Shown here in pieces: positions 7,193-49,340 of a stretch of DNA of 64,000 nt (within the stretch, counting starts at the first letter, position 1; each line of letters opens with the position of its first letter). The translations under genes and the position numbers were made by a program. The stretch is from a virus. The notes under the pieces were generated by a model. The model saw nothing but the letters and a program-made list of their open reading frames with translations. It was not told the DNA's origin and did no database searches. The stretch is taken from positions 1 through 64,000 of the IMG/VR virus record IMGVR_UViG_3300025785_001261, one strand, 5' to 3'.

Positions 7193-7211
7193 TACAAATA
7201 AGTACAGTTCT

Positions 7212-21520: not shown

Positions 21521-21523
21521 TAT

Positions 21524-27629: not shown

Positions 27630-27872
27630 ATGCCAAAGACTGTCTTGCACACATTTACCATGTCGGATGTTGACGATCCATACTTATACGCGGCTTTTCC
27701 CTTGTCAGAGTGGCAAAAGACCGAACACGGCCGGTGGGTAATGGAGCATGCCATTGGTGAACCAACCTTTTATTGTAATGCAGATGCCAACACTTACGGA
27801 TTCCGGGTGGAAGTGATAGGTGATTTGACCGAACAGGATTTGACCTATTTCAAACTAAGGTGGAGCCGATGA
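27630..27872 (+). CDS. Small protein related to the tandem array
   Basis: 80 residues ending LTEQDLTYFKLRWSR, the same C-terminal signature as the eight array proteins at 21524-23486, and with a middle strand NTYGFRVEVIG like theirs (GFAFRFED in member 5). An extended -10 box TGCTATAAT (27619-27624 for the hexamer) ends five bases before the ATG, with no RBS. Its stop overlaps the epimerase ATG. Confidence 0.6.
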   Translation: MPKTVLHTFTMSDVDDPYLYAAFPLSEWQKTEHGRWVMEHAIGEPTFYCNADANTYGFRVEVIGDLTEQDLTYFKLRWSR

Positions 27873-28840
27873 AGGCATTGGTAACAGGTGGATTAGGTTT
27901 TATTGGACACTATGTAGTGGCCATGTTAGAAGCAGTAGGCTACGAAGTGGCCATCATTGATTCAATGACCACTTACGGTATCATACCCATTGGGGAACTT
28001 ACACCCTTGTTGTCGGAACGCATGGCACAGTTTAGTACTAGAGATATTACCATAGCTGACATCAGTGAACCGTTTGATCACAGCATACTTGACGGTGTAG
28101 ATGTAGTCATACACTTGGCCAGCTTTCCGCGGCAAAAAGTAGTGAATCACAATCCACAGGCCGGTTCCAGAGTCATGAGTGAAGGCCTGCTGAATCTCTT
28201 AGAGCTCAGTGTCAAGCATCAGGTTAAAAAGTTTGTGTATGTGAGCTCCAGTATGGTTTATGGCGATTTCAACAAGACCTATTTTGATGGTATAAACGAA
28301 AGTGACGACTGTAGACCCATGGGTCAGTACGGCATCATGAAGCTGGCCGGCGAGTGGTTAGTGCAGGATTATACACGCCGTACTGGCATGAGCCATGTGA
28401 TTGTAAGACCCAGTGCTGTGTATGGTCCTAGAGATGTGGAAGATCGTGTGGTTAGTCGTTTCCTGATAACAGCCATGCAGGGTGGTGAAATACAGGTCAA
28501 CGGTGGCAATGAGAGCCTGGACTTTACCTATGTAACTGACTGTGCCGCCGGCATAGTAGTGGCCGCAGTCAAAACAACCATTGAAAATCGCACTTACAAT
28601 CTCAGCAGAGGACATGCCAGAACCTTGAGCGAAGCGGCCCAGGTAGCTGTGACCACAGCCGGCGCTGGAACTATTCGCCTGAATGATCCTGATGGTGCTT
28701 ATCCCAGTCGCGGACAATTAAATACACTTAATGCTCAACAGGATCTTGGGTTTGCTCCCGAAGTCGACATTGAACAAGGTTTCAAGGACTATTATGAATG
28801 GCTTAAGAATTCCATTTACGGGATTAAAAAAGCAGTATAA
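27869..28840 (+). CDS. NAD-dependent epimerase/dehydratase (extended SDR)
   Basis: 323 residues from the ATGA overlap. GGLGFIG (7-13) binds NAD; SSS at 126-128 and YGIMK (Y154, K158) form the catalytic triad. Length and the RPSAVYGPRD motif fit UDP-glucose 4-epimerase-like SDRs, which epimerise or dehydrate nucleotide sugars. It heads the sugar-tailoring region and likely acts before the aminotransferase next to it. Confidence 0.85.
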   Translation: MKALVTGGLGFIGHYVVAMLEAVGYEVAIIDSMTTYGIIPIGELTPLLSERMAQFSTRDITIADISEPFDHSILDGVDVVIHLASFPRQKVVNHNPQAGSRVMSEGLLNLLELSVKHQVKKFVYVSSSMVYGDFNKTYFDGINESDDCRPMGQYGIMKLAGEWLVQDYTRRTGMSHVIVRPSAVYGPRDVEDRVVSRFLITAMQGGEIQVNGGNESLDFTYVTDCAAGIVVAAVKTTIENRTYNLSRGHARTLSEAAQVAVTTAGAGTIRLNDPDGAYPSRGQLNTLNAQQDLGFAPEVDIEQGFKDYYEWLKNSIYGIKKAV

Positions 28841-29879
28841 CAATCTACGTAGCGAAATCTTGGATGTCACAGATGAAGTGCTACGTTCGGGTCAACTCAT
28901 GGGCGGTAACTACACCGCTGAGTTTGAAAACTGGTTGGCCCGTAAGAATCATTCAAAGTATGCTGTGACCTGTCACTCGGGTAGTCAGGCCTTGGAAATC
29001 ATTGCCGAATACTATCGCTTACAAAGCAGTGTACGTCCGCCTAGAGTAGTCTTACCCAGTATGACCTATGTGGCCACAGCCAATGCATTCATGCGTGCTG
29101 GTTGGGACCTATGGATTTGCGACACCGATGCCAATGGCATACTAAACAAAGACAAGGTACCACAGGATCTTAGCATACAGGCCACTGTGTTGGTTGGCCT
29201 ATACGGTGCTGCGGTCAATGCCGATCGCTTCTGGGGCACTGACCTTGTGATTGAAGATGGTGCACAGCACTGGCTCAGTAACAAGTGCAACAGAGTAGGC
29301 AATGCCACAGCTATCAGCTTTGATCCCATGAAGAATCTCAATGCCTACGGCAATGGCGGTGCTGTAGTAACCGATGACATAGATCTGTTGGAATATGCTA
29401 GAGAATGGATCAACAATGGCAAACCTCGTCATACCAATATAGGCACCAACAGTCGAATGAGTGAAGTAGACTGCGCACAGATGATGATCAAGACCCAACA
29501 CATTGATGCCTGGCAAGAACGGCGCAGAAACATCTGCCTGTACTGGTTAGGACGCTTGAAAAATACCGGCATCCGTAGCTTGATCACCGCACAGAATTTT
29601 GAAACACACGCTTACCACAAGTTTGTGATTGACGTGGATTCGCGTGATATCCTAGCAAGAAATTTAGAAATCAAAGGCATTGAAACTCGTGTACACTACC
29701 GCGAGCCCTTGCATGAGCTGACTGCTTATGCAGACTATCACGGACCTGATATTCTCAGTGTGGCAAGCAGTCTAAGCCGACGTGTACTGAGCCTTCCACT
29801 GTATCCTGAACTAAGTGACTTGGAAGTAGAATATATTATTGATTCGGTACTAGATTGCGCTTTATCAGTGCGTAGCTAG
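28794..29879 (+). CDS. DegT/DnrJ/EryC1 PLP-dependent aminotransferase
   Basis: 361 residues from ATG at 28794, overlapping the epimerase by 47 bases. IPFTGLKKQYNNL start, SGSQAL (62-67) phosphate cup, EDGAQH (154-159) with D155, and SFDPMKNLNAYGNGG with K180 as the PLP lysine. These enzymes aminate keto-sugars bound to nucleotides. With an epimerase/dehydratase upstream, an amino-sugar product is likely. It ends inside the start-distal part of the next convergent gene. Confidence 0.85.
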   Translation: MNGLRIPFTGLKKQYNNLRSEILDVTDEVLRSGQLMGGNYTAEFENWLARKNHSKYAVTCHSGSQALEIIAEYYRLQSSVRPPRVVLPSMTYVATANAFMRAGWDLWICDTDANGILNKDKVPQDLSIQATVLVGLYGAAVNADRFWGTDLVIEDGAQHWLSNKCNRVGNATAISFDPMKNLNAYGNGGAVVTDDIDLLEYAREWINNGKPRHTNIGTNSRMSEVDCAQMMIKTQHIDAWQERRRNICLYWLGRLKNTGIRSLITAQNFETHAYHKFVIDVDSRDILARNLEIKGIETRVHYREPLHELTAYADYHGPDILSVASSLSRRVLSLPLYPELSDLEVEYIIDSVLDCALSVRS

Positions 29880-31437
29880 ACAACCAAGCCCAGTCATAAC
29901 TTTTTTTCAAGGCATCAAAATCACCGCCAACAGCATCGTAGTATTCCACAGCATCTTCTGCACCGCACACACTCCATTCACTGTTTTTTACCGCTCCAGA
30001 ATCAGTAAGCCACTCACGTAACCGCGATTCATTTTCTATATCGGGCAGACTAGCTTTTAATTTCAACACTTCACGGAATGCTGTACGCCAGGTCATCCAG
30101 GGTGTGTCATTGTAGTAGGCTGTTCCGCTCAGGATCGGCACCACTTCGTGTGCATCATCTAGAGTAAAGTCTAGTCCCACACCGGGGTTGGCCAAGACCA
30201 AACGACGATTGTAAGCAATCATGGCCTGATGACCATAGGTTAGACCGTTGATGGGATTGCGTGCATGGAAGATATAGTGCTTGGGTTCCTGCAATCTATC
30301 AGGTTGCCAGGTCCAGTCAAATGTACCTTCTACACGCAACTTGGCAAATACAGCAAAAAACCAAGGTGTGGTGCTGAGCCTGGCAGCTGCTTGATAGGCT
30401 GCCACACGTCCTGTGACTCCTGAGCTACGATGTATACGATTGTTGCTGTTTTGAGTAGTTACATTTAGAAATGCCCAGTTCTGATCAGCACCTGGTTCAC
30501 CGTTGTCAATAAACACAATGTCTAGTGGTGGTTCCTGTCCACGTGCATAGCTCTTGTCAATGTAAGGATAATCGTAAATCTGCCGACGTAGATGCGTTTT
30601 GGCTTCTCTAGGTACTACTGTAACTCCAGCACCACGTGTGAGTGGCACCACAGTTTTAGTACGTTCTTGCCACAAGCTCACTGTGGGTTCAAACACAGTA
30701 CTACCACCGGTGCTGAACATGACCAATGGTGTGACAAACTCGTGCTCCTGTATAGCGGCCACATGAGTATCGTGTGCATGTTCAACCACTGGCATGGGCT
30801 TACGTGGTACCATGATATTCTCTACGAAGTTAAGTCCATCATACCATTCCAGTAACTTGATGTCTTGGCTACGTTCTAAGAATGTGGGTACATGTACATA
30901 AAAGGTGTCACCAAACCTTTGTCGATCAGATGCAAACACATGTAGCATGCTCTGTTGCCATTCGCTGGGATGCCAAGTAAAGTTGAAATAGGTATAGTCG
31001 CATACACTACTAACTACCCAGGCATACTCTGACGAAGTCTTGCTCAACAGGCGACGTAGAGTTCCTAAATAGTCGCTTACATAGCGTACTGTGTGCTCAC
31101 AGGCCACATCAACACCTTCGCCGTGGTCTATGCCTAGTACTGCGACAGATTCCTTGCGTTTCAGTATTGGATGGTTGTAATTGGTATCGGTATAACCAGC
31201 TGTGGGAACCAGTTCGGTGCCACCATTCTGCTGGTGTTGGCTGGGCCATACATGTCGTTGATGACTCTCCCAGGGCACAGGTTCCCATAAAAAATCAAAG
31301 CCCCGATAGTCAGTTAAATAGTTGACCCACCAAAAGTATCTAGTACGACTCAATTCCTTAGCCTGATCCAGATCACGAGCCCATCGCTCGTGAGCAAACA
31401 AGTTGGGTTTGGGTCCGGAATAAAATATATCAAACAT
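29836..31437 (-). CDS. Large glycosyltransferase-related protein with three internal repeats
   Basis: 533 residues. A segment with the pattern aromatic-WV...DY...F-F-x-W-x-P...HV(W/F)xS occurs at about 34-63 and 137-168, with a third form at 358-391. The C-terminal part (about 304-460) matches the GT2-like protein at 46230-47165: DIVFIDNGEPG, GRVAAYQAAARLSTTPWF, HARNPINGLTYG, TWRTAFREVLKL. The DGD metal motif of that protein is absent here. Catalysis is therefore doubtful; it could be a recognition or scaffold subunit. Its start codon overlaps that of the next plus gene at CATG. Confidence 0.55.
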   Translation of the reverse strand: MFDIFYSGPKPNLFAHERWARDLDQAKELSRTRYFWWVNYLTDYRGFDFLWEPVPWESHQRHVWPSQHQQNGGTELVPTAGYTDTNYNHPILKRKESVAVLGIDHGEGVDVACEHTVRYVSDYLGTLRRLLSKTSSEYAWVVSSVCDYTYFNFTWHPSEWQQSMLHVFASDRQRFGDTFYVHVPTFLERSQDIKLLEWYDGLNFVENIMVPRKPMPVVEHAHDTHVAAIQEHEFVTPLVMFSTGGSTVFEPTVSLWQERTKTVVPLTRGAGVTVVPREAKTHLRRQIYDYPYIDKSYARGQEPPLDIVFIDNGEPGADQNWAFLNVTTQNSNNRIHRSSGVTGRVAAYQAAARLSTTPWFFAVFAKLRVEGTFDWTWQPDRLQEPKHYIFHARNPINGLTYGHQAMIAYNRRLVLANPGVGLDFTLDDAHEVVPILSGTAYYNDTPWMTWRTAFREVLKLKASLPDIENESRLREWLTDSGAVKNSEWSVCGAEDAVEYYDAVGGDFDALKKSYDWAWLSSYALIKRNLVPNQ

Positions 31438-32512
31438 GATCAGAATCGACGAAATTTATTATAACACATTCTTGCCTCAAATACAAGCAAATCCTCGTGG
31501 AGCCATGCACTGGTTTGATCCATTTGGCTCAGTGAGTTTTGAAGATTTGTGTGCGGAACCGGCAGTGGATCATGGGCATGATACTGTCAGGTATCTGTTT
31601 TGGGATCAGGAACCGCTACATAAAAATACCACAGATCCAACACTATCTCAGTTTGTTATCAACTTCCCCAAGGGACAACGTCACCTAATAACCAGCGAAC
31701 AGAACAGTGAATTTGTTGAGCAGGCCTGTGATACTTATGGATTTACTGCCCACTACTACTTCTTTCATGGCTGGGCAGCTTTAGACTGGTTCAGAGGATA
31801 TGATCGTAGCTTTCTGATTCCTCGTGCCAAACGCCGTTCCCCTGGCAAGACTTTTATGAGTCCAAATCGTATTGTATCTGGCATGCGAGATCATCGTGTG
31901 CTGTTTCTTTACAATGTATTTAAACAGCAACTACAACACAATTATATCAGCGCACCCAGGATTTGCCCATACTCAGGCGAAAACATTCTCGAAATCGCCG
32001 CAGGTCATGCCAACACATACCCGGACATAAAGGATGTGTTTTCTCAGGTTGAGTTGCCAAGATATTTTGCGGGAGAAGCTCAGCAGGAGATGAGTTCATA
32101 TCAACTCGGCAACTGGCAGGAGGCCAGTGATAGTCTAGTGTATGTAGCTACAGAAACAGTATACTATGGCCGTAGGCAACATCTGACAGAAAAAACATTC
32201 AAGGCCATGGCATTAGAAATGCCATTTATTCTGGTGGCTGCAGCCGGTAGTCTGGAATATTTAAAGAGTTATGGATTCCAAACCTTTGGTGGAATCTGGG
32301 ATGAAAGCTACGACAACGAAACAGATCCTGTACGCCGTGTAGAAAAGGTCACACAACTACTAAAAGAGTTGGATTCATTGAATCAACACGACCGCCAACA
32401 CATACACGATCTTTGTGTACCCATAGTCGAACACAATTACGTACATTTTTATTCTGGCTCTTTTGAACGTGTATTATGGAAAGAACTCACAGGAATGTTG
32501 CATGACTTTTAA
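31436..32512 (+). CDS. GT10-like glycosyltransferase, family A member 4
   Basis: 358 residues. YVATETVYYGRRQHLTEKTFKAMALEMPFI, AAAGSLEYLKSYGFQTFGGIWDESYD carries the family C-terminal signature. The N-terminal part (VRYLFWDQEPLHK; HYYFFHGWAALDWF) differs from members 1-3, suggesting another acceptor. Divergent from the repeat protein with start codons sharing CATG. Confidence 0.55.
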   Translation: MIRIDEIYYNTFLPQIQANPRGAMHWFDPFGSVSFEDLCAEPAVDHGHDTVRYLFWDQEPLHKNTTDPTLSQFVINFPKGQRHLITSEQNSEFVEQACDTYGFTAHYYFFHGWAALDWFRGYDRSFLIPRAKRRSPGKTFMSPNRIVSGMRDHRVLFLYNVFKQQLQHNYISAPRICPYSGENILEIAAGHANTYPDIKDVFSQVELPRYFAGEAQQEMSSYQLGNWQEASDSLVYVATETVYYGRRQHLTEKTFKAMALEMPFILVAAAGSLEYLKSYGFQTFGGIWDESYDNETDPVRRVEKVTQLLKELDSLNQHDRQHIHDLCVPIVEHNYVHFYSGSFERVLWKELTGMLHDF

Positions 32513-33578
32513 ATTCGCTATTCATCCAGGATCGATGCCAAGACGTATGTTGATGAATGCCATGGATGCTCACTCTATACCTTACGAAATACAGTCCATA
32601 CAGAATAGCATGCCCGGTACTCCATATTTTGTTACCTTTGATACGTTTGACCACAAATATGATTACATCGCTGCCATACCAGATGCGGTATTCGACCGCG
32701 ATCTTAGAATTATATTCTACTATCACGAGGGTGATCATCCAGGTTTCATCCGACAGCGTCTAGACGATCGTTGTAGGCAACATTCACGAAATATAGATTG
32801 TTACAGACTGGTCAGTGCCAATACCTTGGCCGATCAATTGGATCGTTGTTGCTATTTTAATGATCACGAAATGCGGTACTGGTTAGGCAATAGATCCACC
32901 CAACCATTGGAAATCCATAATCGTCCCAGACCATTTGAGTTTACAGCACTGAGTCGTACACACAAATGGTGGAGAGCCACAGTCATGACTGATTTAAAAT
33001 TGCGCGGGCTGTTAGATCATAGTCAATGGAGCTACAATACACTGTTGGATCTAGGTCAGGACAAGGAAGTTGATAATCCCATTGAGCTAGGCAAAATTTT
33101 TAACTATCACCTGGATCAATTCATATCGGCCGGGCCTTACACTTGCGATGACATGGACAGCGATAGTCATAACAACCATTCGATTCTGGTTCCAAAACAT
33201 TTTACTGAGTCCTATTGTAGCATAGTGTTGGAGACTTTTATTGATATTGAAAATTCAAATGGCACTTTCCTGACCGAAAAAACTTTCAAGTGTATCAAGC
33301 ACGGACATCCATTTGTATTGATAGCACCGCCGGGCAGCTTACAACTTCTGCGCGACATGGGGTATCGTACCTTTGATCATGCTATAGATAATTCTTACGA
33401 CTTGATAAAGGATCCTACCGAGCGCTGGCTCAGTATTGCCAAAACTATTGAAAAATTACAGGCCCAAGATATGCAGGTCTGGTTTGAATCGTGCAGAGAA
33501 GATCTAGAACATAACCAACAGTTATTCTGTGACAGCAAGGCTGACAGATTAAATACCCTTATTGAAAGACTACAATGA
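32502..33578 (+). CDS. GT10-like glycosyltransferase, family A member 5
   Basis: 358 residues from ATG at 32502, overlapping the previous gene by 11 bases; the codon at 32463 lies inside it. TFLTEKTFKCIKHGHPFVLI, PPGSLQLLRDMGYRTFDHAIDNSYD is the signature. The N-terminal domain shows an IIFYYHEGDHPGF element. Next gene overlaps by ATGA. Confidence 0.55.
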   Translation: MTFKFAIHPGSMPRRMLMNAMDAHSIPYEIQSIQNSMPGTPYFVTFDTFDHKYDYIAAIPDAVFDRDLRIIFYYHEGDHPGFIRQRLDDRCRQHSRNIDCYRLVSANTLADQLDRCCYFNDHEMRYWLGNRSTQPLEIHNRPRPFEFTALSRTHKWWRATVMTDLKLRGLLDHSQWSYNTLLDLGQDKEVDNPIELGKIFNYHLDQFISAGPYTCDDMDSDSHNNHSILVPKHFTESYCSIVLETFIDIENSNGTFLTEKTFKCIKHGHPFVLIAPPGSLQLLRDMGYRTFDHAIDNSYDLIKDPTERWLSIAKTIEKLQAQDMQVWFESCREDLEHNQQLFCDSKADRLNTLIERLQ

Positions 33579-34594
33579 TCAACAGCTATACATCCTGGCA
33601 ACCACTTGAAGAAGTCATAGTGGGGCGTGCCTACACACCGGACTACTTTGACTTTATTGACAATGCGCAGGTACGCAATCAACTGCAACAGATCCTAAAT
33701 GAAACTGCCGAAGATCTAGATAATCTACAGCGTACTATTGAAATCTATGGTGCTCGGGTGCGTAGACCTAATCTGATGGATCGACATCAATTTCAACAGA
33801 GTCAGTTAGCAGGACAAGGTGCTCCATTACCTCCTCTTACTCCTCGAGATTGGCAAATCAGTTTAGGACAAAAACTCCTACGGGTACTTCCCATGAAAGA
33901 ACTGGACGATATTTGCAAGGACTATGCCGATCAAGTGGTCAATCCACACGGTGCTGATTGGGATCCTGGCTGCATATTAAATGGTGCAAGTGCATCGTGC
34001 ATCGTGCGTGTAGGACGCGATGTGTTTTTTGACAACAGTGATTTTTTGCGTCCTGATCAAACACGCTGGATCGTAGACAACTGCTTGGGTCCAGAGTACA
34101 GAATACATGAAGCTGTGACCGACGGTCATGGGGATGCTGTGTTTGCCATACTCAAACCCGGAGTAATTCTTTCAAGCAAACACGACATGCATCTGCATCT
34201 AGCAGAAGACTTTCCTGGTTGGGAAGTGTTGAAGATCTGGGATAGCAGTATCTGGGCTGCTATGGAAGTGGGCAAGTTCAAGTATGAAGAAAGTCCCGGT
34301 GCCTGGTATGTGCAGGGGCAAACACCTACTCCTGAGTTTACCACCTTTGTGGATACCTATCTGAACAAATGGACCGGCTTTGTGGCCGAAACAGTATTTG
34401 ATGTCAACTGCCTGGTGTTGGACGAAGAAAATGTGATTTTTAGCGCCTACAATAAAAATGTATTTGATTTTTGCAAACGACATAGAATCAATCCCATCAT
34501 CAGCGAACTGCGTCATAGCTATTTCTGGGACGGTGGCATTTCGTGTTGTACACAGGATCTGCGCCGCAGCGGCGGATTAGAAACTTATCTTTGA
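33575..34594 (+). CDS. Amidinotransferase-family protein
   Basis: 339 residues. W-PLEEVIVG start, DPGCILNG (about 130-137), DGHGDAVF with H185 and a C-terminal GGISCCTQDLRR with the expected catalytic Cys at 324 match glycine/inosamine amidinotransferases of the guanidino-group-modifying superfamily. They move an amidino group from arginine to an amine, as in creatine or streptomycin-type pathways. After an aminotransferase, the target could be an amino sugar, giving a guanidino sugar. Length is close to the family norm. Confidence 0.8.
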   Translation: MINSYTSWQPLEEVIVGRAYTPDYFDFIDNAQVRNQLQQILNETAEDLDNLQRTIEIYGARVRRPNLMDRHQFQQSQLAGQGAPLPPLTPRDWQISLGQKLLRVLPMKELDDICKDYADQVVNPHGADWDPGCILNGASASCIVRVGRDVFFDNSDFLRPDQTRWIVDNCLGPEYRIHEAVTDGHGDAVFAILKPGVILSSKHDMHLHLAEDFPGWEVLKIWDSSIWAAMEVGKFKYEESPGAWYVQGQTPTPEFTTFVDTYLNKWTGFVAETVFDVNCLVLDEENVIFSAYNKNVFDFCKRHRINPIISELRHSYFWDGGISCCTQDLRRSGGLETYL

Positions 34595-34604
34595 TCTCAA
34601 AACA

Positions 34605-34886
34605 GTGCGGGCCATAGTAAGATTTTTCAAAGAAAGTCATCAGCGTAGTCCGCATGTGTTCTGGCTGGATCTAGCCAGTACCATACTGACCATGATAGCC
34701 AGTCTCAGCTTGGCTATCACAGCCCGAGCACCACACATGGAATATATCTATCCCGGCTACTTCCTGGGCAGTTTGATCAGCATCTATACCGGTTATCGTC
34801 GACACAGCCCCTGGACTGTAGTCTTGTGCAGTTATTTCTGCGTGATGAACATTGCTGGATTTAGTAGGGCCGCTGGTTGGATCTAG
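34605..34886 (+). CDS. Small membrane protein
   Basis: 93 residues from a GTG start. Three hydrophobic segments: FWLDLASTILTMIASLSLAI, YPGYFLGSLISIYTG and PWTVVLCSYFCVMNIAGF. No RBS is clear. Converges with the carbamoyltransferase gene. Unknown family; may anchor or aid the surrounding enzymes. Confidence 0.55.
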   Translation: MRAIVRFFKESHQRSPHVFWLDLASTILTMIASLSLAITARAPHMEYIYPGYFLGSLISIYTGYRRHSPWTVVLCSYFCVMNIAGFSRAAGWI

Positions 34887-34887
34887 C

Positions 34888-39914: not shown

Positions 39915-39915
39915 G

Positions 39916-41133
39916 TTAATCTGGTCCCATATAATTGATCATGTGAGCGAATTCTGGTTCCACCTTACAGAGATTTTGACCACGTCGGCGATCCAGATTG
40001 GCCATTTCTCTACGCATGTTGAAACCGTCTAGACTGACACCGCCCAGCATGAAATCAATGATGCGATCAAATTCCTTACGGTCCTGCGGATTGACCCGAG
40101 CCAGGCGCAGACGTTGTGCGATTGTATACTTGGCCGATTCTGGCAAGGTGCTGATACTAAAGTAATAGGCTTCATGCATCATGTTCCAGTAGACAAAATC
40201 AAACTGTTGTTGCTCAATCCAGTGACTTAATTCTTCAAGATAGCATACATTAAATACATTCACCGTGGCACATACCTGTAGTTGTATGTTGTCACAACGT
40301 CTGCGCATGTCTTGGAAACGTTCAATGTTGGCACACACTTCGGTCCATTGAGCATTGCTACGTTGGTATTCAAATCTAGCACCCACATCGTCGATGCTGA
40401 AAGCTATTTCCACTGTTTTAAAATAGCGCCAAATTTCTTCAGCTTGCTCAGGCCATTGTGTGCCATTGGTGTTGTAATGTATTTCTATATTGTGAGCTAT
40501 GCCGCGATTGATCAAGCCCTGCAACATGTCAAAGTGTTCTTGGATCATAAATGGTTCGCCACCGGTGAATTCAATGTAGCGTATTTGATCTGACACTTGA
40601 TCTATTTCAGTCCAGAATGTTTCATTTTCTCTAGGCCATGCACCGTTGCGTAACATTTGATAATGAAAACTGGTTTTCTTATCTTCACCGGGTTCCAAAT
40701 TGGCCAGTTCTTCTATGGCAAATGTACTTGAGCTCCATGATCCACAGATACGACATTTTAAATTGCAGATGTTGCCCAGCTTGAGATCTAAGAACATGAG
40801 TGGTTTGGCATCTGCGGTCCATTCTGAATCGTCAATCATGTGCTTGAGTCGATCCAGGGTATGCATACGCTTCGATGTACGGCCACTACGTTCTTCACGC
40901 CAGCATTTTCTACAGGTCTGTGGCTGTTCACCGGCTAGGAACTGTTCACGTAGATGTCGCATACTGGCGCTGTCCTGTATGCTACTGAATTGTGCGGTGG
41001 CCAGATTGAATTTTTGTCCAGACTCATCTACCAGTTCATCTTCGGCCAGGCAACAAGGACGTACCGTGCCAACAGGACTGGTTTCCAAGCTGATCCATGG
41101 CAGTACGCAGAATCGATCGTGTGGTATTTTCAT
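39916..41133 (-). CDS. Twitch-type radical SAM protein 2
   Basis: 405 residues. C123xxxC127xxC130 (NICNLKCRICG) and FTGGEPFMIQEH. The N-terminal CVLPWISLETSPVGTVRPCC and CRKC carry the same extra cysteines as its relatives. ATGA overlap with protein 3 upstream. Confidence 0.82.
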   Translation of the reverse strand: MKIPHDRFCVLPWISLETSPVGTVRPCCLAEDELVDESGQKFNLATAQFSSIQDSASMRHLREQFLAGEQPQTCRKCWREERSGRTSKRMHTLDRLKHMIDDSEWTADAKPLMFLDLKLGNICNLKCRICGSWSSSTFAIEELANLEPGEDKKTSFHYQMLRNGAWPRENETFWTEIDQVSDQIRYIEFTGGEPFMIQEHFDMLQGLINRGIAHNIEIHYNTNGTQWPEQAEEIWRYFKTVEIAFSIDDVGARFEYQRSNAQWTEVCANIERFQDMRRRCDNIQLQVCATVNVFNVCYLEELSHWIEQQQFDFVYWNMMHEAYYFSISTLPESAKYTIAQRLRLARVNPQDRKEFDRIIDFMLGGVSLDGFNMRREMANLDRRRGQNLCKVEPEFAHMINYMGPD

Positions 41134-43783: not shown

Positions 43784-44837
43784 GTATAAATTTTTCAAAG
43801 CGTTGAGGAAATTCGGCACGGACCTGTAGCCGCATGTCTGCGAGATGTTGCTTGTTGTATTTACACACATCCTCGCAGGCTGTAAGGAAACTGGCCAGAT
43901 CTTGCTGACACAGATCTCGTATCACTTCGGCACATCGCACTACACGAACATGATTGTCGGCTATGTTATCAAAAGATTCATCTATCACATGTCCAAACGT
44001 GCGGAAACCCAGTTTGTGTAGATCTCTATAAAATCCACAATTGGCCACAGCAATAAATGGATGACCAATGGCTATGGGTTTCCATATTTTTTCTGTCCGG
44101 AAACTGTAAGGATATCTATGCACTGTTTCGGTGACCACGCTGAAATATGTGTCCTGATAAGGACGAGCCTTGAGATATATTTCTCCCCAGATTCCGCGGA
44201 ACAGTTGATTTTTGATCAGTCCCACCGAGACTGTGGTATCGACAGTCGAATCAAACATGTCAGGTTCATAACCGGCCGGTAAAAGCTGTATTGGGCCGTT
44301 GCCACTATCCAAATTGGTCCACAAGGCCTGATCCAGTACCGGTCTCAACAGGTCTATCATGTAGCGTCTATGATCGCGTTGTCGTCCATTCAGGAACAGG
44401 AACTTATAAGGACGATCTGTAGAATATTGATCCTGATACTGTTGCACTGCTTCCATGTTTTCCACATAGTCATACAGCTTGGGCAAAAAACTTTCATACA
44501 ACAGATGCGGATACTGTGCAGGGATATCACCGCCGGTGATAACTGGAATCTGCCCTTGCTCAAGCAGATCCATCACTTTCAATCCAAATTCACAGTGAGT
44601 AATCACAGTTTCGGACCCTTCGGCTGGATTGCTAAAAACTACATCTATAGTTTTATTTCGCACAAGATCTACGATGAGATCGCGATTGGCATTGAACTGC
44701 TGTCGACCAATCACATATACTGCGCCTGGCAAAATTTCGTGTTGCGATAAATCCCAAAATTCTGCATCAATCCAAGGTTGTATTAGATCAGATATTTCAC
44801 TAAAGGTGTCTACTACCAGCTTACGATTGCCTAGCAT
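43764..44837 (-). CDS. GT10-like glycosyltransferase, family A member 6
   Basis: 357 residues. SFRTEKIWKPIAIGHPFIAV and GFYRDLHKLGFRTFGHVIDESFD show the family signature. The N-terminal part (YVIGRQQFNANRDLIVDLV; FLFLNGRQRDHRRYMIDLL) fits a GT-B-like Rossmann domain. It separates the two radical SAM proteins of the second subfamily, overlapping both. Confidence 0.55.
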   Translation of the reverse strand: MLGNRKLVVDTFSEISDLIQPWIDAEFWDLSQHEILPGAVYVIGRQQFNANRDLIVDLVRNKTIDVVFSNPAEGSETVITHCEFGLKVMDLLEQGQIPVITGGDIPAQYPHLLYESFLPKLYDYVENMEAVQQYQDQYSTDRPYKFLFLNGRQRDHRRYMIDLLRPVLDQALWTNLDSGNGPIQLLPAGYEPDMFDSTVDTTVSVGLIKNQLFRGIWGEIYLKARPYQDTYFSVVTETVHRYPYSFRTEKIWKPIAIGHPFIAVANCGFYRDLHKLGFRTFGHVIDESFDNIADNHVRVVRCAEVIRDLCQQDLASFLTACEDVCKYNKQHLADMRLQVRAEFPQRFEKFIRERFRV

Positions 44838-46236
44838 AGTATTCGCACTCCTTCCACCAGGCAGTCATTTCTGGAAAGGTCTTTAAAAAATCTGTGCCAT
44901 GTCTGCGATCGGCTTCGCTAAAGAATCTAAAAAAGTCGGCCTTGTTGCGTTGTAAGTATGCAGGCTCTAACTTTTGTCCATCACGCATCCAGGCTATGTC
45001 GCGATCCAGTCTGGCTATCTCGTAGTCTTTGAATCCATGAAAAGGATCGTCCTCGCGTTCAATTTGACGTATCATCCAGGCCCAGAGATATTCCAACTGT
45101 TCTGCATAACTTTCAGGCAGTAGCTGTAAACTTTGCCAGGCAGGCTGACGAAGTACAGGAGTGTCAAACCAAACACGTTGATAAGTCTTGCTGTACAGTT
45201 TGCGCAGGCCTAAAATACCAGCAAACAGGCTACTGAGATTGGTCACACTCAGATTGTTCATGGTCACAATAAAAGTAATGCTGTTGCGACCAGGAATCTC
45301 TGTTAGAAATTGATTAACGCGATCCCATAAGAGATTAAAATCTAAACCGTGACGAATATATTCAGCCTGCGACCCCCACGAATCCAAACTTACATACTGC
45401 ATAAAATGTTCGATCTTTTCACCCTCACACAGTTCTTTCACATGGCCTTTGTATTTTTGCCACGACTTTTCATCCACACTAAAATTACTAGTCACATCCA
45501 AGTGTAAGTTGGGTTTAGGGTTGGCCAACACATAGTCAAACACACGATAGGTATTCTTATCCAGCATGGGTTCGCCGCCAGTCATGCGGAAATGTTCTAG
45601 TTCTGGATACAGTTCAGGCCACCAAGACCAAAATGCATCAACGTAGGGATTGGCGTCACGACTAGGTATAGGGCGATTGCGACCAGTAAAGTGACTGGGA
45701 TCATTGTGTATAGTGCCAGTAGGATATCCTCCCCACTTATCAACTTCTGCTTGCCAAGTTGAGCTAAACTGCGGACTACAGTAACTACAAGCCAAATTAC
45801 AGGCGTGATTAAAATTAACTTCAACATAACTAGGAACAACATTTTCATCTCCTGAGGAATTCATTATTGATTCAAAATTTACGGCCGCCCATGGCTCGCC
45901 CGATCTGTAGTGTCGATCACTTAGTTTGCCATTGTCCTCCATGCTCCAGCAGTAGCTACATTCTGCAGGACGTTCTTGTTGCAACATGATCTTGCGTTGT
46001 ATTTTTTTGTAGGGTGTATTGTGCAGAATACTAGGATCGTTGGCCAGCGACTCAGTGGGTATTTCATGCAAGGGAGGATGGTAGCAACTGTTGTTGAGTC
46101 CGGTAGTTAAATGAAGGCTTACCTGTTTCCATTTGGCCAGGCACATGGCCGGACCCAACAGAGCCTGCATGTCCTCGGCACTGCTCAGAAATTTAGATTT
46201 GAAATCTGAAGTGATTTCATCACCCTTGTTTACCAT
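44821..46236 (-). CDS. Twitch-type radical SAM protein 5
   Basis: 471 residues. C146xxxC150xxC153 (HACNLACSYCS), RMTGGEPML, N-terminal CLAKW, SCYHPP and CSYCWSMEDNG, shared with protein 4. Overlaps the glycosyltransferase behind it by 17 bases and the GT2-like gene ahead by 7. Confidence 0.82.
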   Translation of the reverse strand: MVNKGDEITSDFKSKFLSSAEDMQALLGPAMCLAKWKQVSLHLTTGLNNSCYHPPLHEIPTESLANDPSILHNTPYKKIQRKIMLQQERPAECSYCWSMEDNGKLSDRHYRSGEPWAAVNFESIMNSSGDENVVPSYVEVNFNHACNLACSYCSPQFSSTWQAEVDKWGGYPTGTIHNDPSHFTGRNRPIPSRDANPYVDAFWSWWPELYPELEHFRMTGGEPMLDKNTYRVFDYVLANPKPNLHLDVTSNFSVDEKSWQKYKGHVKELCEGEKIEHFMQYVSLDSWGSQAEYIRHGLDFNLLWDRVNQFLTEIPGRNSITFIVTMNNLSVTNLSSLFAGILGLRKLYSKTYQRVWFDTPVLRQPAWQSLQLLPESYAEQLEYLWAWMIRQIEREDDPFHGFKDYEIARLDRDIAWMRDGQKLEPAYLQRNKADFFRFFSEADRRHGTDFLKTFPEMTAWWKECEYYARQS

Positions 46237-47165
46237 CCTTCTTGACTCCTGATCACATCAATTTCTTTGTCCATAAAATGACGGTTTTGCCAGTTACTGC
46301 GATAATGATGTTTGAAGAAGGCGCTTTCTTTCTCCAACATCATGTTGATGGGCAGACTCAGTTGTGTGGTAAGATCCTCGGCCACACGGCCAGCAAGTAG
46401 TTCTGGATTAGAATTTTCCACCGTTGTCCATAATTGAGCCAGAGTATCAAAGTCCTGCACCTGTTTGTAGTCCCAATCGGTCAGCATGGTCATGTAGGTG
46501 CCCATACGTGATCCTGCGATAGCCCAGATGCCATTGTCTACATCGCGTCCTACATTGTGCCATATGGTCAAGTGATCAAGATTGCGATGATGTACACGAT
46601 CTTGGAATTCTGTTACTGTGGGGCGTGCGCCTTGATTCAAGCACATCTTCACTCCTTCACGGAAGCCAGCACGCCAGGCCTGGAAAGCAGATCCGTTAGG
46701 GTAAGTGGTACTATAACAGTTGTACATGGCATGATAATCTGGATAGAAACAGAACTCCACATCATTGGCCGCAGAACCGTCTGTGTTTTCATGGGTACGC
46801 ATGGTGGCCACGAACTCTCGGGTCCAGCATGACAGTCCGCCATTGCCGTACATGAGTCCATTGATGATGTTTCTAGCACGCCAACGAAATACAGCACGGT
46901 GCTCATGGGCACCTTTGAGTACGATACGTTGATTGAAAAAATCTTCGTCAGGAATGTTGTCACCGTCGATCAAGATGAATCGCTCAGTTGTACTCATTTC
47001 AGCTGCGGCCTTATGTGCGGCGTCTGATCCTTTGATGCCATCTACACGTCGTGCCCAGGGCACCATATTTTTGATACGCACCCAAGTTTCTTCCTTGTTG
47101 GGTTCATCATAGCTGAGGTATATGCAATCCAAATCGGCTACGTCTATTCCTGTTACTTCAATCAT
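46230..47165 (-). CDS. GT2-like glycosyltransferase
   Basis: 311 residues from ATG at 47165, which overlaps the upstream stop as ATGA; the frame continues upstream but inside that gene. STTERFILIDGDNIPDEDFF carries the DxD-type metal/nucleotide-sugar motif (DGD). RARNIINGLMYGNGG and FQAWRAGFREGVKM are shared with the 533-residue repeat protein at 29836-31437. An inverting GT-A enzyme is likely; donor unknown. Confidence 0.65.
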   Translation of the reverse strand: MIEVTGIDVADLDCIYLSYDEPNKEETWVRIKNMVPWARRVDGIKGSDAAHKAAAEMSTTERFILIDGDNIPDEDFFNQRIVLKGAHEHRAVFRWRARNIINGLMYGNGGLSCWTREFVATMRTHENTDGSAANDVEFCFYPDYHAMYNCYSTTYPNGSAFQAWRAGFREGVKMCLNQGARPTVTEFQDRVHHRNLDHLTIWHNVGRDVDNGIWAIAGSRMGTYMTMLTDWDYKQVQDFDTLAQLWTTVENSNPELLAGRVAEDLTTQLSLPINMMLEKESAFFKHHYRSNWQNRHFMDKEIDVIRSQEGW

Positions 47166-47497
47166 TGTAAACTCCATTTGATATGCGGTTCTGACTCGTT
47201 GACCATGACACAGATGTCTTGTGGGTGACAAGCTGTGCCTTTCCCATTGGGACGAAGTTTGTGTATTGTACTGGTTTTGATAAAGACCAATTTTCCTTCA
47301 ACCACGCGACAGTTGGTTGGACCAGCTCTAAATATTTCTGGATCAACGTCTATGTAATTACCGGGTAAATCTTCCATACTGTAAAATAACACATCGCCCA
47401 GTTCGTTGTAGTATAATCTATAGATAGGATCATGCACATCTGGCGGTACATATTGTGACAAGGCCAGCCAAAAATTATCATTGGTACTATTGCTCAT
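47162..47497 (-). CDS. Small hypothetical protein
   Basis: 111 residues from ATG at 47497, overlapping the upstream stop by 11 bases. Beta-rich (YRLYYNELGDVLFYSMEDLPG; CRVVEGKLVFIKTSTIHKL) with a PHIKWSLQ ending. Similar short proteins accompany glycosyltransferases in large aquatic phages as far as I remember. Function unknown. Confidence 0.6.
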   Translation of the reverse strand: MSNSTNDNFWLALSQYVPPDVHDPIYRLYYNELGDVLFYSMEDLPGNYIDVDPEIFRAGPTNCRVVEGKLVFIKTSTIHKLRPNGKGTACHPQDICVMVNESEPHIKWSLQ

Positions 47498-48218
47498 TGT
47501 TCCAGTCCTTGACATGATAGTGCACCAGACCCCATTGGGCGATAGTGTTGATCCTGAAAGGATCGTTTTCCCAGACCAGTTCGTCAGTCCAATTTTCAGA
47601 GACAGTTCCTATCATATTTTTCTTCATGTGTACTATGGTTGGACCCAATCCTGGCGGCAAGGTCACTTGATCTTCGCCAATGATAACTGCAGCCATGGCA
47701 TAGACCACATCGGTGGTGGCTTCTAAATCTGGAAATTTCAACAACACACGGTACTGTTGCCAATTGGTAAAAATTGTACGCACCAGATCAAAAAAATCCT
47801 GTGCTGTTTTACTACGGCGCCAATAGGTAATGGCATTGTAAACGTCTGGCAAACTGTTATGATCAAATATCTTGCGATATAAACGAGACTGGCCTGGCGT
47901 GTCATGATAAGTCCGGCAACCGGTACTGATCACTAGATCTCTGCGTTCAAACAAGGTCCACCAATGATCAATTGGGCTGGCGCAGAGCATGTCCGCTTCT
48001 AACTTGATAGTCTGTCTGTAGGGACTAATCTCAAACATTTGCCAATCGTTAGCGAATCCGCCCAGATCTCCATGTGGTAATTGATCAACAGTCACTATGG
48101 ATATGTCAGCCAGCGGATGATGCTGTAGTATCGAGTCAGCCAGGCGCCTGGCGCAGGTCACATATTGATCGCCAATGGCCGGTATCAAGTATCCACGTTC
48201 AGCTAGCAAGGTCAACAA
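47487..48218 (-). CDS. GT8-like glycosyltransferase 1
   Basis: 243 residues. Plan of GT8/glycogenin-like GT-A enzymes: Y-x-x-x-A-xx-L-xx-S start (YVTCARRLADSIL), IKLEADMLC as the acidic nucleotide-sugar site, then PGLGPTIVHMKKNMIG with the late His-x-K metal motif. Likely a retaining transferase. Paired with the next gene. Confidence 0.65.
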   Translation of the reverse strand: MLTLLAERGYLIPAIGDQYVTCARRLADSILQHHPLADISIVTVDQLPHGDLGGFANDWQMFEISPYRQTIKLEADMLCASPIDHWWTLFERRDLVISTGCRTYHDTPGQSRLYRKIFDHNSLPDVYNAITYWRRSKTAQDFFDLVRTIFTNWQQYRVLLKFPDLEATTDVVYAMAAVIIGEDQVTLPPGLGPTIVHMKKNMIGTVSENWTDELVWENDPFRINTIAQWGLVHYHVKDWNNEQ

Positions 48219-48963
48219 TGGCTCCTAAGTGTCCTTTGCCCATGGCATGAAAATCATGTGTCAGTTTCATCCAGCGTGGACGAGATTCTTGATCAGTCCA
48301 GTCCACACGATATTCATCTGGACCTGTCTTGGTCAGTTTGTGTTCGTGTGTGACTGTGGCCAATTTCCAAGGAATATCAGCATGATTCAACACATGCCCG
48401 TTGACCATGCCTAGTGCTATACTCAGGGCAAAGTCGTTACGATACGTGGTACGAGATATGCCGTACAAGCTACGATAATGATCCCAGTGTTGGCGTACCA
48501 TCTGCATGCTTTCAAATATCAATTGGGCCTGTTCACTGCGGCGGAACATCATGACTGTGGCCCACCACATGGGCATGCGATGATCACCAAAAGTATCCAA
48601 GTCTTTAAAAGTTTCTTTGGCTGTGACATCATAAGCGGTACGATGGGCAATAAAATCTATATCTGCTTCTAGCAAGGCCTGTAGCTGGTTGCTGGCCACC
48701 ACATAGTCGGCATCCAGCACCAAGGTACAATCCCATGGTGACAGATTATAGGCATCTACACGATTGACATTGTACCAGGTGACCTGAGACGGTAGGTCCT
48801 GGAAGGTTCTAGTTGATCCAGCAATCGGTTCTACATCCTGATTGGTTATGATTCTGGTAGGTATGCCAAGATGCCGTTCAATGTTGCTGGCTGACCAGCG
48901 AGCCATGGCTTCGTAGTCAACATGTTCGTTATTAAAAGCAAAGATTAACGCACCTGTGGTCAT
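48199..48963 (-). CDS. GT8-like glycosyltransferase 2
   Basis: 254 residues. MARWSASNIERHLGIPTRI, LVLDADYVV as the DxD motif, and THDFHAMGKGHL with the late His. A paralogue of protein 1 in design, overlapping it by 20 bases. The pair may add successive sugars to one acceptor. Confidence 0.65.
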   Translation of the reverse strand: MTTGALIFAFNNEHVDYEAMARWSASNIERHLGIPTRIITNQDVEPIAGSTRTFQDLPSQVTWYNVNRVDAYNLSPWDCTLVLDADYVVASNQLQALLEADIDFIAHRTAYDVTAKETFKDLDTFGDHRMPMWWATVMMFRRSEQAQLIFESMQMVRQHWDHYRSLYGISRTTYRNDFALSIALGMVNGHVLNHADIPWKLATVTHEHKLTKTGPDEYRVDWTDQESRPRWMKLTHDFHAMGKGHLGAIVDLAS

Positions 48964-49262
48964 CGGTTACTGTTCAAAGTTTCATATTCAACCAACCAGG
49001 CATTGAGTTGTTCTTGCCAACGTTCAAGTACCTGCTCGTAAAATTCTTCAGCATTGACTCTTACCGGTGTTTCATACAGATCTAGGATCACAACATCACC
49101 ACTACAGCATTTTAATAGAGTCAACAGCTCTGGTCCGGCCTGCCACATGCCTCCGGCATGAGCAAATACAGATTTGCCTTGGTATTTTTCTTTGAGCATG
49201 CGACGAGAAGCAGCATGCTCAAAACGGGCACGGGCGTGTGCTACAAGTTTTTCAGTATCCAT
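48960..49262 (-). CDS. Small helical hypothetical protein
   Basis: 100 residues. Helices MDTEKLVAHARARFEHAASRR and EEFYEQVLERWQEQLNAWLVEYE flank a beta core (VVILDLYETPVRV). It leads the minus-strand operon; a -10 box TATAAT (49269-49274, minus strand) lies five bases upstream. Family not recognised. Confidence 0.6.
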   Translation of the reverse strand: MDTEKLVAHARARFEHAASRRMLKEKYQGKSVFAHAGGMWQAGPELLTLLKCCSGDVVILDLYETPVRVNAEEFYEQVLERWQEQLNAWLVEYETLNSNR

Positions 49263-49294
49263 AGGTTTATTATACTACAAAAACTACATAAGGT

Positions 49295-49315: not shown

Positions 49316-49340
49316 GGTGATATATCGTCGAGTATTACGG

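What the first reader, a model, noticed from the sequence alone, without database searches (positions are those of the whole stretch)
27869..49262. Sugar- or metabolite-tailoring island: epimerase, aminotransferase, amidinotransferase, carbamoyltransferase, five radical SAM proteins
Twenty-one kb hold enzymes that together resemble an aminoglycoside-like or decorated-sugar pathway: keto-sugar formation and amination, guanidino transfer, carbamoylation, oxidation and multiple glycosyl transfers. The UDP-sugar dehydrogenase, cytidylyltransferase and amidotransferase at the left end may join in. In a phage this could coat the virion, alter host surface glycans, or modify DNA or proteins. The set as a whole is not one I know.
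Basis: partly seen in the sequence, partly recalled or inferred. Interest (0 to 1): 0.88.

Follow-up and report, generated by a model that had tools for sequence, protein, structure and literature searches.

The report
Jumbo-phage sugar-tailoring island beside tail fibres
A family of uncultured giant bacterial viruses carries, next to its tail-fibre genes, a strictly ordered block of about 20 genes, including five radical SAM enzymes and several sugar transferases, that probably builds and decorates an unusual sugar coat, most likely on the virus's own fibres, though this has not been tested in the laboratory.

Summary
Window 27860-49262 encodes an NDP-sugar epimerase/dehydratase, a DegT aminotransferase, an AGAT/StrB-type amidinotransferase (AMT), a NodU-like carbamoyltransferase (CARB), five N-terminal-twitch radical SAM proteins (NF033640, all above cut-off, CxxxCxxC intact in all 384 orthologue rows) and three related glycosyltransferases (one shown as GT-B by AlphaFold and fold search), plus GT-A-like and unknown proteins. 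The record is a fragment of a T4-superfamily jumbo phage, distantly related to CBB and Atu_ph07. Gene order is highly conserved in relatives (CARB within 5 kb of AMT 76 of 76; u347 next to rS1 92 of 92; u100 next to fib342 51 of 51). Eleven of 11 long relatives (316-364 kb) carry a five-rSAM block and 7-17 such rSAMs above cut-off. The block starts behind a Ser/Thr-rich tail-protein gene (fib342), separated by a terminator and, in most relatives, a sigma70-like promoter. No exporter or flippase was seen in the island, and no PF00303 hydroxymethylase in 11 of 11. Best reading: cytosolic assembly and radical tailoring of a guanidino/carbamoyl-bearing glycan, most likely on virion fibres; host-surface remodelling is the main rival. 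New variant of a known theme.

The parts
27860..28840 (+). SDR: NAD-dependent NDP-sugar epimerase/dehydratase
   Evidence: Pfam Epimerase 3.7e-41; phrog_540 nucleotide-sugar epimerase 1.1e-50
28731..29879 (+). DegT/StrS-family sugar aminotransferase
   Evidence: Pfam 2.3e-54; best NCBIfam PseC, below cut-off
29836..31437 (-). GTx533: glycosyltransferase-like, often longer or duplicated in relatives
   Evidence: hhalign to GTa333 prob 98.7; no Pfam; label inferred, weakest of the set
31436..32512 (+). GTb358: GT-B glycosyltransferase family
   Evidence: hhalign to GTb371 prob 99.6
32463..33578 (+). GTb371: GT-B glycosyltransferase (start probably downstream of 32463)
   Evidence: AF2 pLDDT 86.3; VIA Z 13.7 fucosyltransferase, 13.5 T4 BGT; Foldseek 22 hits E<=1e-3
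33575..34594 (+). AMT: amidinotransferase of the AGAT/StrB/HsvA type
   Evidence: PDB HsvA 8.4e-15; motifs 70/70; alignment A6
34605..34886 (+). u93: small hydrophobic ORF, matched only in three loci identical or nearly identical to the window
   Evidence: KD19 max 1.70; 3 loci
34888..36339 (-). CARB: NodU/Nol-like carbamoyltransferase
   Evidence: Pfam N+C domains; phrog_1601 4.2e-94
36424..37107 (-). u227: unknown, variable slot
   Evidence: phrog_7084 8.9e-6; 9 loci, copies of the window included
37104..38147 (-). u347: unknown core protein, tentative cyclophilin-like barrel with helical insert
   Evidence: AF2 pLDDT 83.6; VIA best Z 8.3, borderline; next to rS1 in 92 of 92
38116..39417 (-). 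rS1: N_Twi radical SAM
   Evidence: NF033640 282.0 bits
39402..39914 (-). u170: unknown; variable slot (a GT-like gene sits here in some relatives)
   Evidence: no library hit; slot variation
39916..41133 (-). rS2: N_Twi radical SAM
   Evidence: NF033640 337.9 bits
41130..42470 (-). rS3: N_Twi radical SAM
   Evidence: NF033640 406.1 bits
42452..43870 (-). rS4: N_Twi radical SAM (start probably inside the listed ORF, which overlaps GTb357)
   Evidence: NF033640 278.6 bits
43764..44837 (-). GTb357: GT-B glycosyltransferase family
   Evidence: hhalign to GTb371 prob 99.7
44821..46236 (-). rS5: N_Twi radical SAM
   Evidence: NF033640 297.6 bits; alignment A2
46230..47231 (-). GTa333: GT-A-like, DGDN motif
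   Evidence: DGDN in 62 of 62; no glycosyltransferase hit in Pfam
47162..47515 (-). u117: unknown small conserved protein
   Evidence: next to GTa333 in 48 of 50
47487..48218 (-). GTa243: GT-A-like
   Evidence: hhalign to GTa254 prob 99.1; phrog_1903, unknown function
48199..48963 (-). GTa254: GT-A-like, invariant D84/D86
   Evidence: alignment A9, 13 rows; co-occurs with N_Twi rSAM
48960..49262 (-). u100: first gene of the leftward operon, unknown
   Evidence: next to fib342 in 51 of 51
49263..49340 (-). terminator-like hairpin plus sigma70-like promoter (TTTACC-17-TATAAT) between fib342 and u100
   Evidence: read; exact TATAAT in 35 of 55 distinct relatives, a -35/-10 pattern in 26 of 55
49341..50369 (-). 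fib342: Ser/Thr-rich (28%) fibre-like protein; candidate acceptor
   Evidence: composition; alignment A8; adjacency; no PHROG hit
50382..51662 (-). fib426: virion protein (homologue of CBB gp231)
   Evidence: HMM match 9e-11; CBB_231 found in virions, 12 peptides
51713..52333 (-). fib206: virion protein (homologue of CBB gp230)
   Evidence: HMM match 6e-76; CBB_230 found in virions, 2 peptides
52496..64000 (-). giant virion structural protein, runs past the window to record position 67402 (4968 aa)
   Evidence: phrog_10938 2.5e-185; start traced

Best explanation
The island is a cytosolic glycan-building and tailoring module of a T4-superfamily jumbo phage whose most likely acceptor is a virion fibre protein. 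Inferred steps: the SDR and DegT enzymes make an aminated nucleotide sugar; soluble glycosyltransferases assemble a short glycan directly on the Ser/Thr-rich tail protein fib342 (or the neighbouring giant or fibre proteins); the amidinotransferase turns an amine into a guanidine; the carbamoyltransferase adds O-carbamoyl; the five radical SAM enzymes carry out C-H chemistry (epimerisation, oxidation, deoxygenation or bond formation) on the sugars or on the acceptor chain. Shown here: the enzyme families, intact catalytic motifs, the GT-B fold of one transferase, conserved gene order, linkage to fib342, and a terminator with a separate promoter. Inferred: the acceptor, the order of steps and the chemistry of each rSAM.
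For: Families and motifs. GT-B fold: (the 50 VIA rows shown are all glycosyltransferases, glycogen and trehalose synthases included; SdgB, which glycosylates a protein repeat, is among them). Synteny. fib342-u100-GTa stays together in a wider phage set: of 59 loci with >=8 kb beyond fib206, 36 have fib342, u100 and GTa genes, 4 have fib342 alone, 19 have none in reach, and none has u100 without fib342. GTa254 is found in 9 of 9 records with above-cut-off N_Twi rSAM and 0 of 5 without (related records, so not independent). Neighbouring virion proteins: CBB_230, CBB_231 and, by position, CBB_236 were detected in CBB virions (passage of PMC5259590). A hydropathy scan finds no membrane segment in the island products except u93, so no flippase or polymerase is evident. 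The same families occur in sugar loci elsewhere: cyanophage AMT beside KdsA/KdsB and a GT; Bacteroidetes rSAM-CARB with ABC-2 exporter, GT1 and epimerase.
Against: The leftward operon has its own terminator and, in most relatives, a sigma70-like promoter, so it is not simply co-transcribed with the fibre genes. In Bacteroidetes the rSAM-CARB pair sits beside a polysaccharide exporter, which fits a surface glycan equally well. Published work reads similar phage GT clusters as host O-antigen modification (passages of PMC7029224; PMC7824862). DegT is replaced by a distant paralogue in some relatives (26-28% in L006, L052, L061, L068) while AMT there stays 82-89% identical, so AMT may not act on the DegT product. 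In G012 and G015 the fib342 profile A8 found nothing in the whole-record search, although a differently built profile labelled a fib342 there. CBB, Atu_ph07 and Phosso have fib206 and fib426 without this island. AMT occurs in only 4 of the 9 rSAM-positive records. No fib342 modification site has been identified.
Confidence: 0.45

Rival explanations
1. Host-surface remodelling: the enzymes make or alter O-antigen or capsule of the infected cell, for example to exclude other phages, using the host's lipid carrier and exporter.
For: Own sigma70-like promoter fits early expression. Bacteroidetes rSAM-CARB loci sit with an ABC-2 exporter. Pelagimyophage hypervariable regions beside tail fibres hold glycosyltransferases and rSAM cassettes and are interpreted so (passages); Iyer et al. 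describe cyano-jumbo-phage polysaccharide clusters with carbamoyltransferases (passage).
Against: No initiating transferase, flippase, polymerase or multi-span membrane protein recognised in the island. Surface-variation loci are expected to be hypervariable, but this island's order is largely fixed and it is tied to one tail gene.
Confidence: 0.27
2. Protein or peptide modification: the rSAM enzymes act on the polypeptide of fibre proteins or on u100/u117 (RiPP-like), the GTs adding sugars afterwards.
For: SPASM/twitch-type auxiliary cysteines (Pfam SPASM in rS2 and rS3; invariant cysteines), common in peptide maturases (recalled). Five paralogues in a fixed order suggest sequential steps on one scaffold. 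Position-equivalent rSAM and cupin clusters follow the fibre genes in Atu_ph07 and Phosso.
Against: I saw no core-like repeated segment in the u100 alignment (by reading); no precursor search was run. Some bacterial N_Twi_rSAM genes sit in sugar loci.
Confidence: 0.13
3. Small-molecule pathway (aminoglycoside-like antibiotic or signal made during infection).
For: SDR, DegT, amidinotransferase, carbamoyltransferase and twitch rSAM together recall streptomycin-type chemistry (recalled); AMT is related to StrB, HsvA and SxtG. A Paenibacillus N_Twi_rSAM lies beside acyl-carrier-like and ketosynthase-like ORFs (by reading the sequences only).
Against: No cyclitol-forming enzyme, kinase or resistance gene among the 20 island ORFs scanned with Pfam; coupling to a virion gene would be unexplained.
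Confidence: 0.1
4. DNA hypermodification, GTs acting on modified bases as T4 beta-GT does.
For: T4 BGT and AGT are among the best folds for GTb371 (Z 13.5 and 12.2).
Against: 0 of 11 long relatives have a PF00303 thymidylate-synthase/dCMP-hydroxymethylase homologue, control positive in 9 of 14 genomes; the records may be incomplete and other base-modifying routes were not searched. BGT ties with fucosyltransferase within 1 Z unit.
Confidence: 0.05

Closest known systems
Hypervariable tail-fibre region of pelagimyophages (PMC7029224; passages read)
   Same: Glycosyltransferases and radical SAM cassettes beside tail-fibre genes of a T4-like phage.
   Different: Described as hypervariable and gradually diverging; ours keeps most of its order over dozens of distinct loci and has AMT, CARB and five N_Twi rSAMs. 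I did not compare sequences with pelagimyophage genomes beyond the INPHARED searches.
Cyanophage jumbo polysaccharide/secondary-metabolite clusters (Iyer et al. 2021, PMC7824862; passages read)
   Same: Glycosyltransferases, NDP-sugar enzymes, carbamoyltransferases and 2OG oxygenases in jumbo phages.
   Different: 'radical SAM' and 'amidinotransferase' do not occur in that paper's main text; those clusters are in cyanophages and polymorphic between relatives.
Fibre-linked rSAM clusters of Agrobacterium phage Atu_ph07 and Sinorhizobium phage Phosso
   Same: Same place: gp6, giant virion protein, fib206, fib426, then several rSAM and hypothetical genes.
   Different: Best match to the N_Twi model is 24.4 and 20.2 bits against a cut-off of 170; no AMT, fib342 or GTa254 match in either genome.
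Bacteroidetes polysaccharide-type loci with N_Twi_rSAM and carbamoyltransferase
   Same: rSAM directly before CARB, then GT and epimerase (L211, L202).
   Different: Bacterial contigs, with exporter and PhyH oxygenase; one rSAM, no fibre genes seen.
Streptomycin-type aminoglycoside pathways (recalled)
   Same: DegT/StrS aminotransferase and StrB-type amidinotransferase.
   Different: No cyclitol synthase or kinase seen in the island.

Membership tests
N_Twi_rSAM (NF033640) | Whole-protein score above curated cut-off 170 bits | tested here: met
   Five of five, 278.6-406.1 bits
N_Twi_rSAM (NF033640) | CxxxCxxC cluster motif and N-terminal twitch cysteines | tested here: met
   CxxxCxxC in all 384 orthologue rows of rS1-rS5; columns of C32, C51, C93, C96 invariant in the 27 rows of A2, which include all five window rSAMs. 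That these are the twitch ligands is inferred
AGAT/StrB-type amidinotransferase | Sequence homology to solved members with catalytic Asp/His/Cys | tested here: met
   7 PDB sequences at E<=1, best 8.4e-15; H-x-D and GG-x-x-C 70 of 70, G[RQ]DVF pattern 61 of 70. Which residues are catalytic is recalled
AGAT/StrB-type amidinotransferase | Arginine-dependent amidino transfer to an amine | not testable with these tools
   needs enzyme assay
NodU/Nol-like carbamoyltransferase | Both N- and C-terminal Pfam domains above cut-off | tested here: met
   phrog_1601 4.2e-94
GT-B glycosyltransferase | GT-B fold | tested here: met
   GTb371 only: Z 13.7, rmsd 4.6, 269 aligned; GTb358 and GTb357 by profile homology
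GT-A glycosyltransferases (GTa333, GTa243, GTa254, GTx533) | Profile or fold match to a known GT-A family | tested here: inconclusive
   No glycosyltransferase hit in window proteins; weak Glyco_tranf_2_3 0.083 in one relative of GTa333; no fold predicted
T4-type DNA glucosylation | Thymidylate-synthase-type hydroxymethylase making the acceptor base | tested here: not met
   0 of 11 long relatives; records may be incomplete
Hypervariable phage LPS/tail-fibre cluster | Position beside tail-fibre genes with glycosyltransferases | tested here: met
Hypervariable phage LPS/tail-fibre cluster | Hypervariable content and order between relatives | tested here: not met
   Within-5-kb order 79 of 84 or better for most pairs; variable ones: GTb358-GTb371 72 of 82, GTb371-AMT 65 of 75, rS4-GTb357 41 of 60, rS5-GTa333 59 of 70, and insertions at AMT-CARB and rS1-rS2
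Aminoglycoside pathway | Cyclitol-forming enzyme and kinase | tested here: inconclusive
   None in 20 island ORFs by Pfam; rest of genome not searched

The most novel reading that the evidence does not exclude
A virus-encoded, self-contained virion-decoration factory: five twitch radical SAM enzymes, an amidinotransferase, a carbamoyltransferase and soluble glycosyltransferases act in sequence on the Ser/Thr-rich tail protein fib342, giving jumbo phages a guanidinylated, carbamoylated and radically modified fibre glycan (or fibre polypeptide) unlike any virion modification I know of.
Probability: 0.3. Interest if true: 0.85.

Novelty: new variant of a known kind. Interest (0 to 1): 0.6.

Why it matters
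Radical SAM enzymes are, to my knowledge, rarely given a role in phage particles. Here a fixed five-enzyme series is locked behind a tail gene in a widespread aquatic jumbo-phage group, whose long members hold 7-17 enzymes of this one family above cut-off. If they decorate virions, they would define new chemistry for phage adsorption, defence evasion and virion stability, and give substrates for the N_Twi_rSAM family. The position-equivalent, though not homologous, rSAM clusters in cultured Atu_ph07 and Phosso make a related question testable now.

Tried and rejected
PDB sequence searches with profiles of u347 (0 hits), GTa333 (0 hits) and GTb371 (only major urinary proteins at E 0.04-0.24) led nowhere; the mixed rSAM profile A2 found only distant rSAMs (15 at E<=1, best viperin-type 3.7e-4). 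Foldseek of u347 gave nothing below E 0.88; VIA gave cyclophilins at Z up to 8.3, which the tool's own note makes borderline, so I assign no function. T4 late promoter TATAAATA in the window: 4 matches against 2.17 expected, 18 of 100 shuffles reach it, so no claim on late promoters. INPHARED tblastn found no match for GTa333, GTb371, u347 or fib342, and only distant AMT (3 records), rS5 (2 records) and rS3 (4 records) matches. Absence of fib342 in 19 of 59 loci may be due to locus ends behind fib426 arrays, so I do not use it as proof of loss.

Corrections to my own calls: the duplicate removal read the wrong strand for turned loci, so its counts include some repeats; one search redoes it and the report uses. 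An early note of mine says that the AG-345-D19 contig has the same gene order; it does not (see full report).

Rows dropped: I left out L004, L005, L084, L159, L250 and L251 (same sequence as the window), used only loci with >=6 kb (>=3 kb for the last four pairs) beyond the first gene, and collapsed identical copies of that gene. In one search orthologues with coverage under 0.7 were dropped; intergenic stretches over 600 bases and identical ones. Scans keep the best 80 loci of 134, 157, 341 and 558 confirmed candidates, so identities are biased upward, and the sets for AMT and rS5 were chosen by having those genes.

Papers: passages only of PMC5332604 (12 rSAM genes in one T4-like marine genome), PMC11360552 and PMC8226683, PMC5259590, PMC8066314, PMC9723584, PMC10914622 and PMC9123017, PMC7824862, PMC6102473 ('radical SAM' 0 times) and PMC7029224; PMC13037316 searched, no passage found; PMC12390700 listing only. 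That I found no published description of this island rests on the paper search over the open-access library only.

Full report
WHAT IS THERE. The window is part of an 86,317-base IMG/VR virus record. It is a T4-superfamily jumbo myovirus fragment: a gp6-like baseplate wedge protein is 31.7-34.5% identical to those of Phosso, XbC2, CBB, GAP32, Munch and Atu_ph07, with gp46/47-like nuclease subunits and a late sigma factor nearby. The order gp6 - giant virion protein - fib206 - fib426 is shared with Atu_ph07 and Phosso (small genes between in Atu_ph07); CBB has the giant next to gp6 and the fib206/fib426 homologues about 6-7 kb further on, on the other strand. The island lies directly behind these genes.

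THE ISLAND. Rightward genes: SDR, DegT, GTb358, GTb371, AMT, u93; leftward genes: GTx533, CARB, u227, u347, rS1, u170, rS2, rS3, rS4, GTb357, rS5, GTa333, u117, GTa243, GTa254, u100. Families come from Pfam, NCBIfam, PHROGs and PDB searches. All five radical SAM proteins exceed the N_Twi_rSAM cut-off; profile comparison gives rS4/rS5 100.0 and rS1/rS5 98.4. CxxxCxxC and GGEP are intact in all orthologue rows examined.

GLYCOSYLTRANSFERASES. Pfam finds none of them. AlphaFold2 on 24 aligned relatives gives GTb371 at pLDDT 86.3. Foldseek has 22 matches at E<=0.001: glycosyltransferases except two UDP-GlcNAc 2-epimerase rows. VIA ranks alpha-1,3-fucosyltransferase (Z 13.7), T4 beta-glucosyltransferase (Z 13.5), TarM and exostosins. 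GTb358 and GTb357 are profile homologues. The remaining 'GT-A' labels are inferences from DxD-like motifs: DGDN 62 of 62 in GTa333, and D84/D86 of GTa254 invariant in 13 rows. A stricter text pattern matched GTa254 in only 37 of 61 and GTx533 in 22 of 54, so GTx533 is the weakest label.

CONSERVATION. Scans of IMG/VR gave 134, 157 and 341 confirmed stretches for AMT, rS5 and u347 (80 kept each). Counted over distinct copies of the first gene, the second gene on the expected strand within 5 kb: SDR-DegT 65 of 68, DegT-GTx533 68 of 68, GTx533-GTb358 79 of 84, GTb358-GTb371 72 of 82, GTb371-AMT 65 of 75, AMT-CARB 76 of 76, CARB-u347 105 of 105, u347-rS1 92 of 92, rS1-rS2 81 of 82, rS2-rS3 76 of 78, rS3-rS4 63 of 64, rS4-GTb357 41 of 60, rS4-rS5 57 of 60, GTb357-rS5 45 of 46, rS5-GTa333 59 of 70, GTa333-u117 48 of 50, GTa333-GTa243 50 of 50, GTa243-GTa254 40 of 40, GTa254-u100 52 of 53, u100-fib342 51 of 51, fib342-fib426 47 of 47, fib426-fib206 31 of 31. 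As the very next labelled gene the figures are lower at the variable slots: AMT-CARB 52 of 76, rS1-rS2 55 of 82, rS5-GTa333 40 of 70. These are the places where extra rSAM or GT genes are inserted. AMT is among the most conserved genes (median 83.6% in the AMT-selected set, a biased set; 74.1% in seven loci of the rS5-selected set), against 45-61% for SDR, DegT, GTx533 and the rightward GTs.

GENOME-WIDE. Eleven long relatives (316-364 kb) have 8-21 N_Twi_rSAM matches at E<=0.001; counting rows above the cut-off by hand gives 7, 10, 16, 10, 9, 10, 9, 8, 17, 10 and 8, and in each of the 11 five lie within about 10 kb, spaced like rS1-rS5 (G009 has a sixth among them). These 11 were picked because they carry AMT or rS5. 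The 14 control genomes ring below, never above, the cut-off. PF00303 is absent in 11 of 11.

MODULARITY. A scan with the virion protein fib206, led by the Atu_ph07 copy, gave 80 of 558 loci. Of 59 new loci with >=8 kb beyond fib206, all 59 have fib426; 36 have fib342 with u100 and GTa genes, 4 have fib342 alone, 19 have none of these in reach; 8 have an N_Twi rSAM in reach. u100 never occurs there without fib342 in front of it. In 14 long records chosen by length or from the first set, GTa254 is found in 9 of 9 with above-cut-off N_Twi rSAM and in 0 of 5 without; fib342 by profile A8 in 7 of 9 and 0 of 5; AMT in 4 of 9 and 0 of 5. So the fib342-GTa-rSAM part is wider, and the AMT-containing part is restricted to nearer relatives of the window.

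TRANSCRIPTION. Between fib342 and u100 lies a hairpin followed by TTTACC-17-TATAAT. In 55 distinct relatives (the window's copy included) TATAAT is exact in 35, a -35/-10 pattern fits 26, and hairpin stems differ in sequence while staying paired in many rows (the last by reading). A subgroup (for example L139, L140, L143, L154) lacks both the promoter and the hairpin, and another (for example L135, L149-L152) has a hairpin without the promoter. So in most relatives the leftward operon looks like its own unit with a host-type promoter; this weakens an argument from co-transcription with fibres.

OTHER CONTEXTS. A marine single-cell virus (AG-345-D19) has AMT, CARB (50.6% identical) and an rSAM on one 8-kb contig, but in another arrangement: AMT and CARB are divergent there and convergent in the window, and the rSAM follows CARB. 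Cyanophage S-SCSM2R has AMT beside KdsA, KdsB, a glycosyltransferase and 2OG oxygenases. Among 76 loci of bacterial genome records, at least four (L174-L177) are evidently phage contigs with this island; 9 of 76 have CARB and 3 of 76 an AMT match (one a contig-end piece) near the rSAM. Bacteroidetes locus L211 has rSAM-CARB with ABC-2 exporter, GT1 and epimerase by Pfam; L202 has a similar layout, its exporter-like protein without Pfam support. Atu_ph07 and Phosso have other rSAMs and a cupin/JmjC protein at the equivalent place.

INTERPRETATION. Sugar chemistry is well supported. The acceptor is the open point. For the virion: linkage to a Ser/Thr-rich tail protein, no recognised membrane or export genes, order more rigid than expected of surface-antigen loci. 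For the host surface: separate promoter, exporter-linked bacterial relatives and published readings of similar clusters.

NOVELTY. Glycosyltransferases and rSAM cassettes beside phage tail fibres are in print, and so are phage carbamoyltransferases in sugar clusters. A fixed five-rSAM, amidinotransferase-containing island tied to one tail gene did not turn up in my searches. I therefore rate it a new variant of a known kind.

Noticed in passing
window 6820-7194: Phage-encoded tmRNA matching the betaproteobacterial model (E 7.4e-48) with tag ANDEQFALAA; hints at a betaproteobacterial host.
   Followed up: no
window 21500-23486 and 27630-27872: Run of small ORFs (about 70-100 aa) with similar xFxLKW-like tails, apparently tandem paralogues leading towards the island (seen by reading).
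   Followed up: no
window 9378-12420: Three more members of the GTb family outside the island (best E 5e-20, 5e-13 and 3e-10).
   Followed up: no
window 15219-16355 and 19078-20220: Two PP-loop-ATPase-like proteins: the first has Pfam ATP_bind_3 at only 0.034, the second an SGGADS motif by reading but no Pfam hit.
   Followed up: partly
window 52496-64000 and beyond: The giant virion protein runs to record position 67402, 4968 aa, not the 3809 aa visible in the window.
   Followed up: yes
L003:10077-11177 (record 85076-86176): Another radical SAM gene near the gp46-like gene (phrog_21308).
   Followed up: no
L168:25998-33647 and L169:19866-28015: Cultured rhizobial jumbo phages Atu_ph07 and Phosso have a different rSAM and cupin cluster at the same place behind the fibre genes.
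   Followed up: partly
L186, L190, L192, L194, L196, L198, L199, L201, L220: One Elusimicrobia bin (MJ-2014_bin-0981) has nine contigs with 2-6 N_Twi-like rSAM genes each, perhaps a large mobile element.
   Followed up: no
rS3 orthologues: rS3 identity to the window looks two-peaked, mostly about 45-52% or 70-83%, in otherwise similar loci, as if two alleles were swapped.
   Followed up: no
L033:3541-7728 and similar: GTx533 homologues are longer or duplicated in relatives, ORFs up to about 1395 aa.
   Followed up: no
G001, G005, G011, G017: Second, more distant amidinotransferase copies or fragments elsewhere in the same genomes.
   Followed up: no
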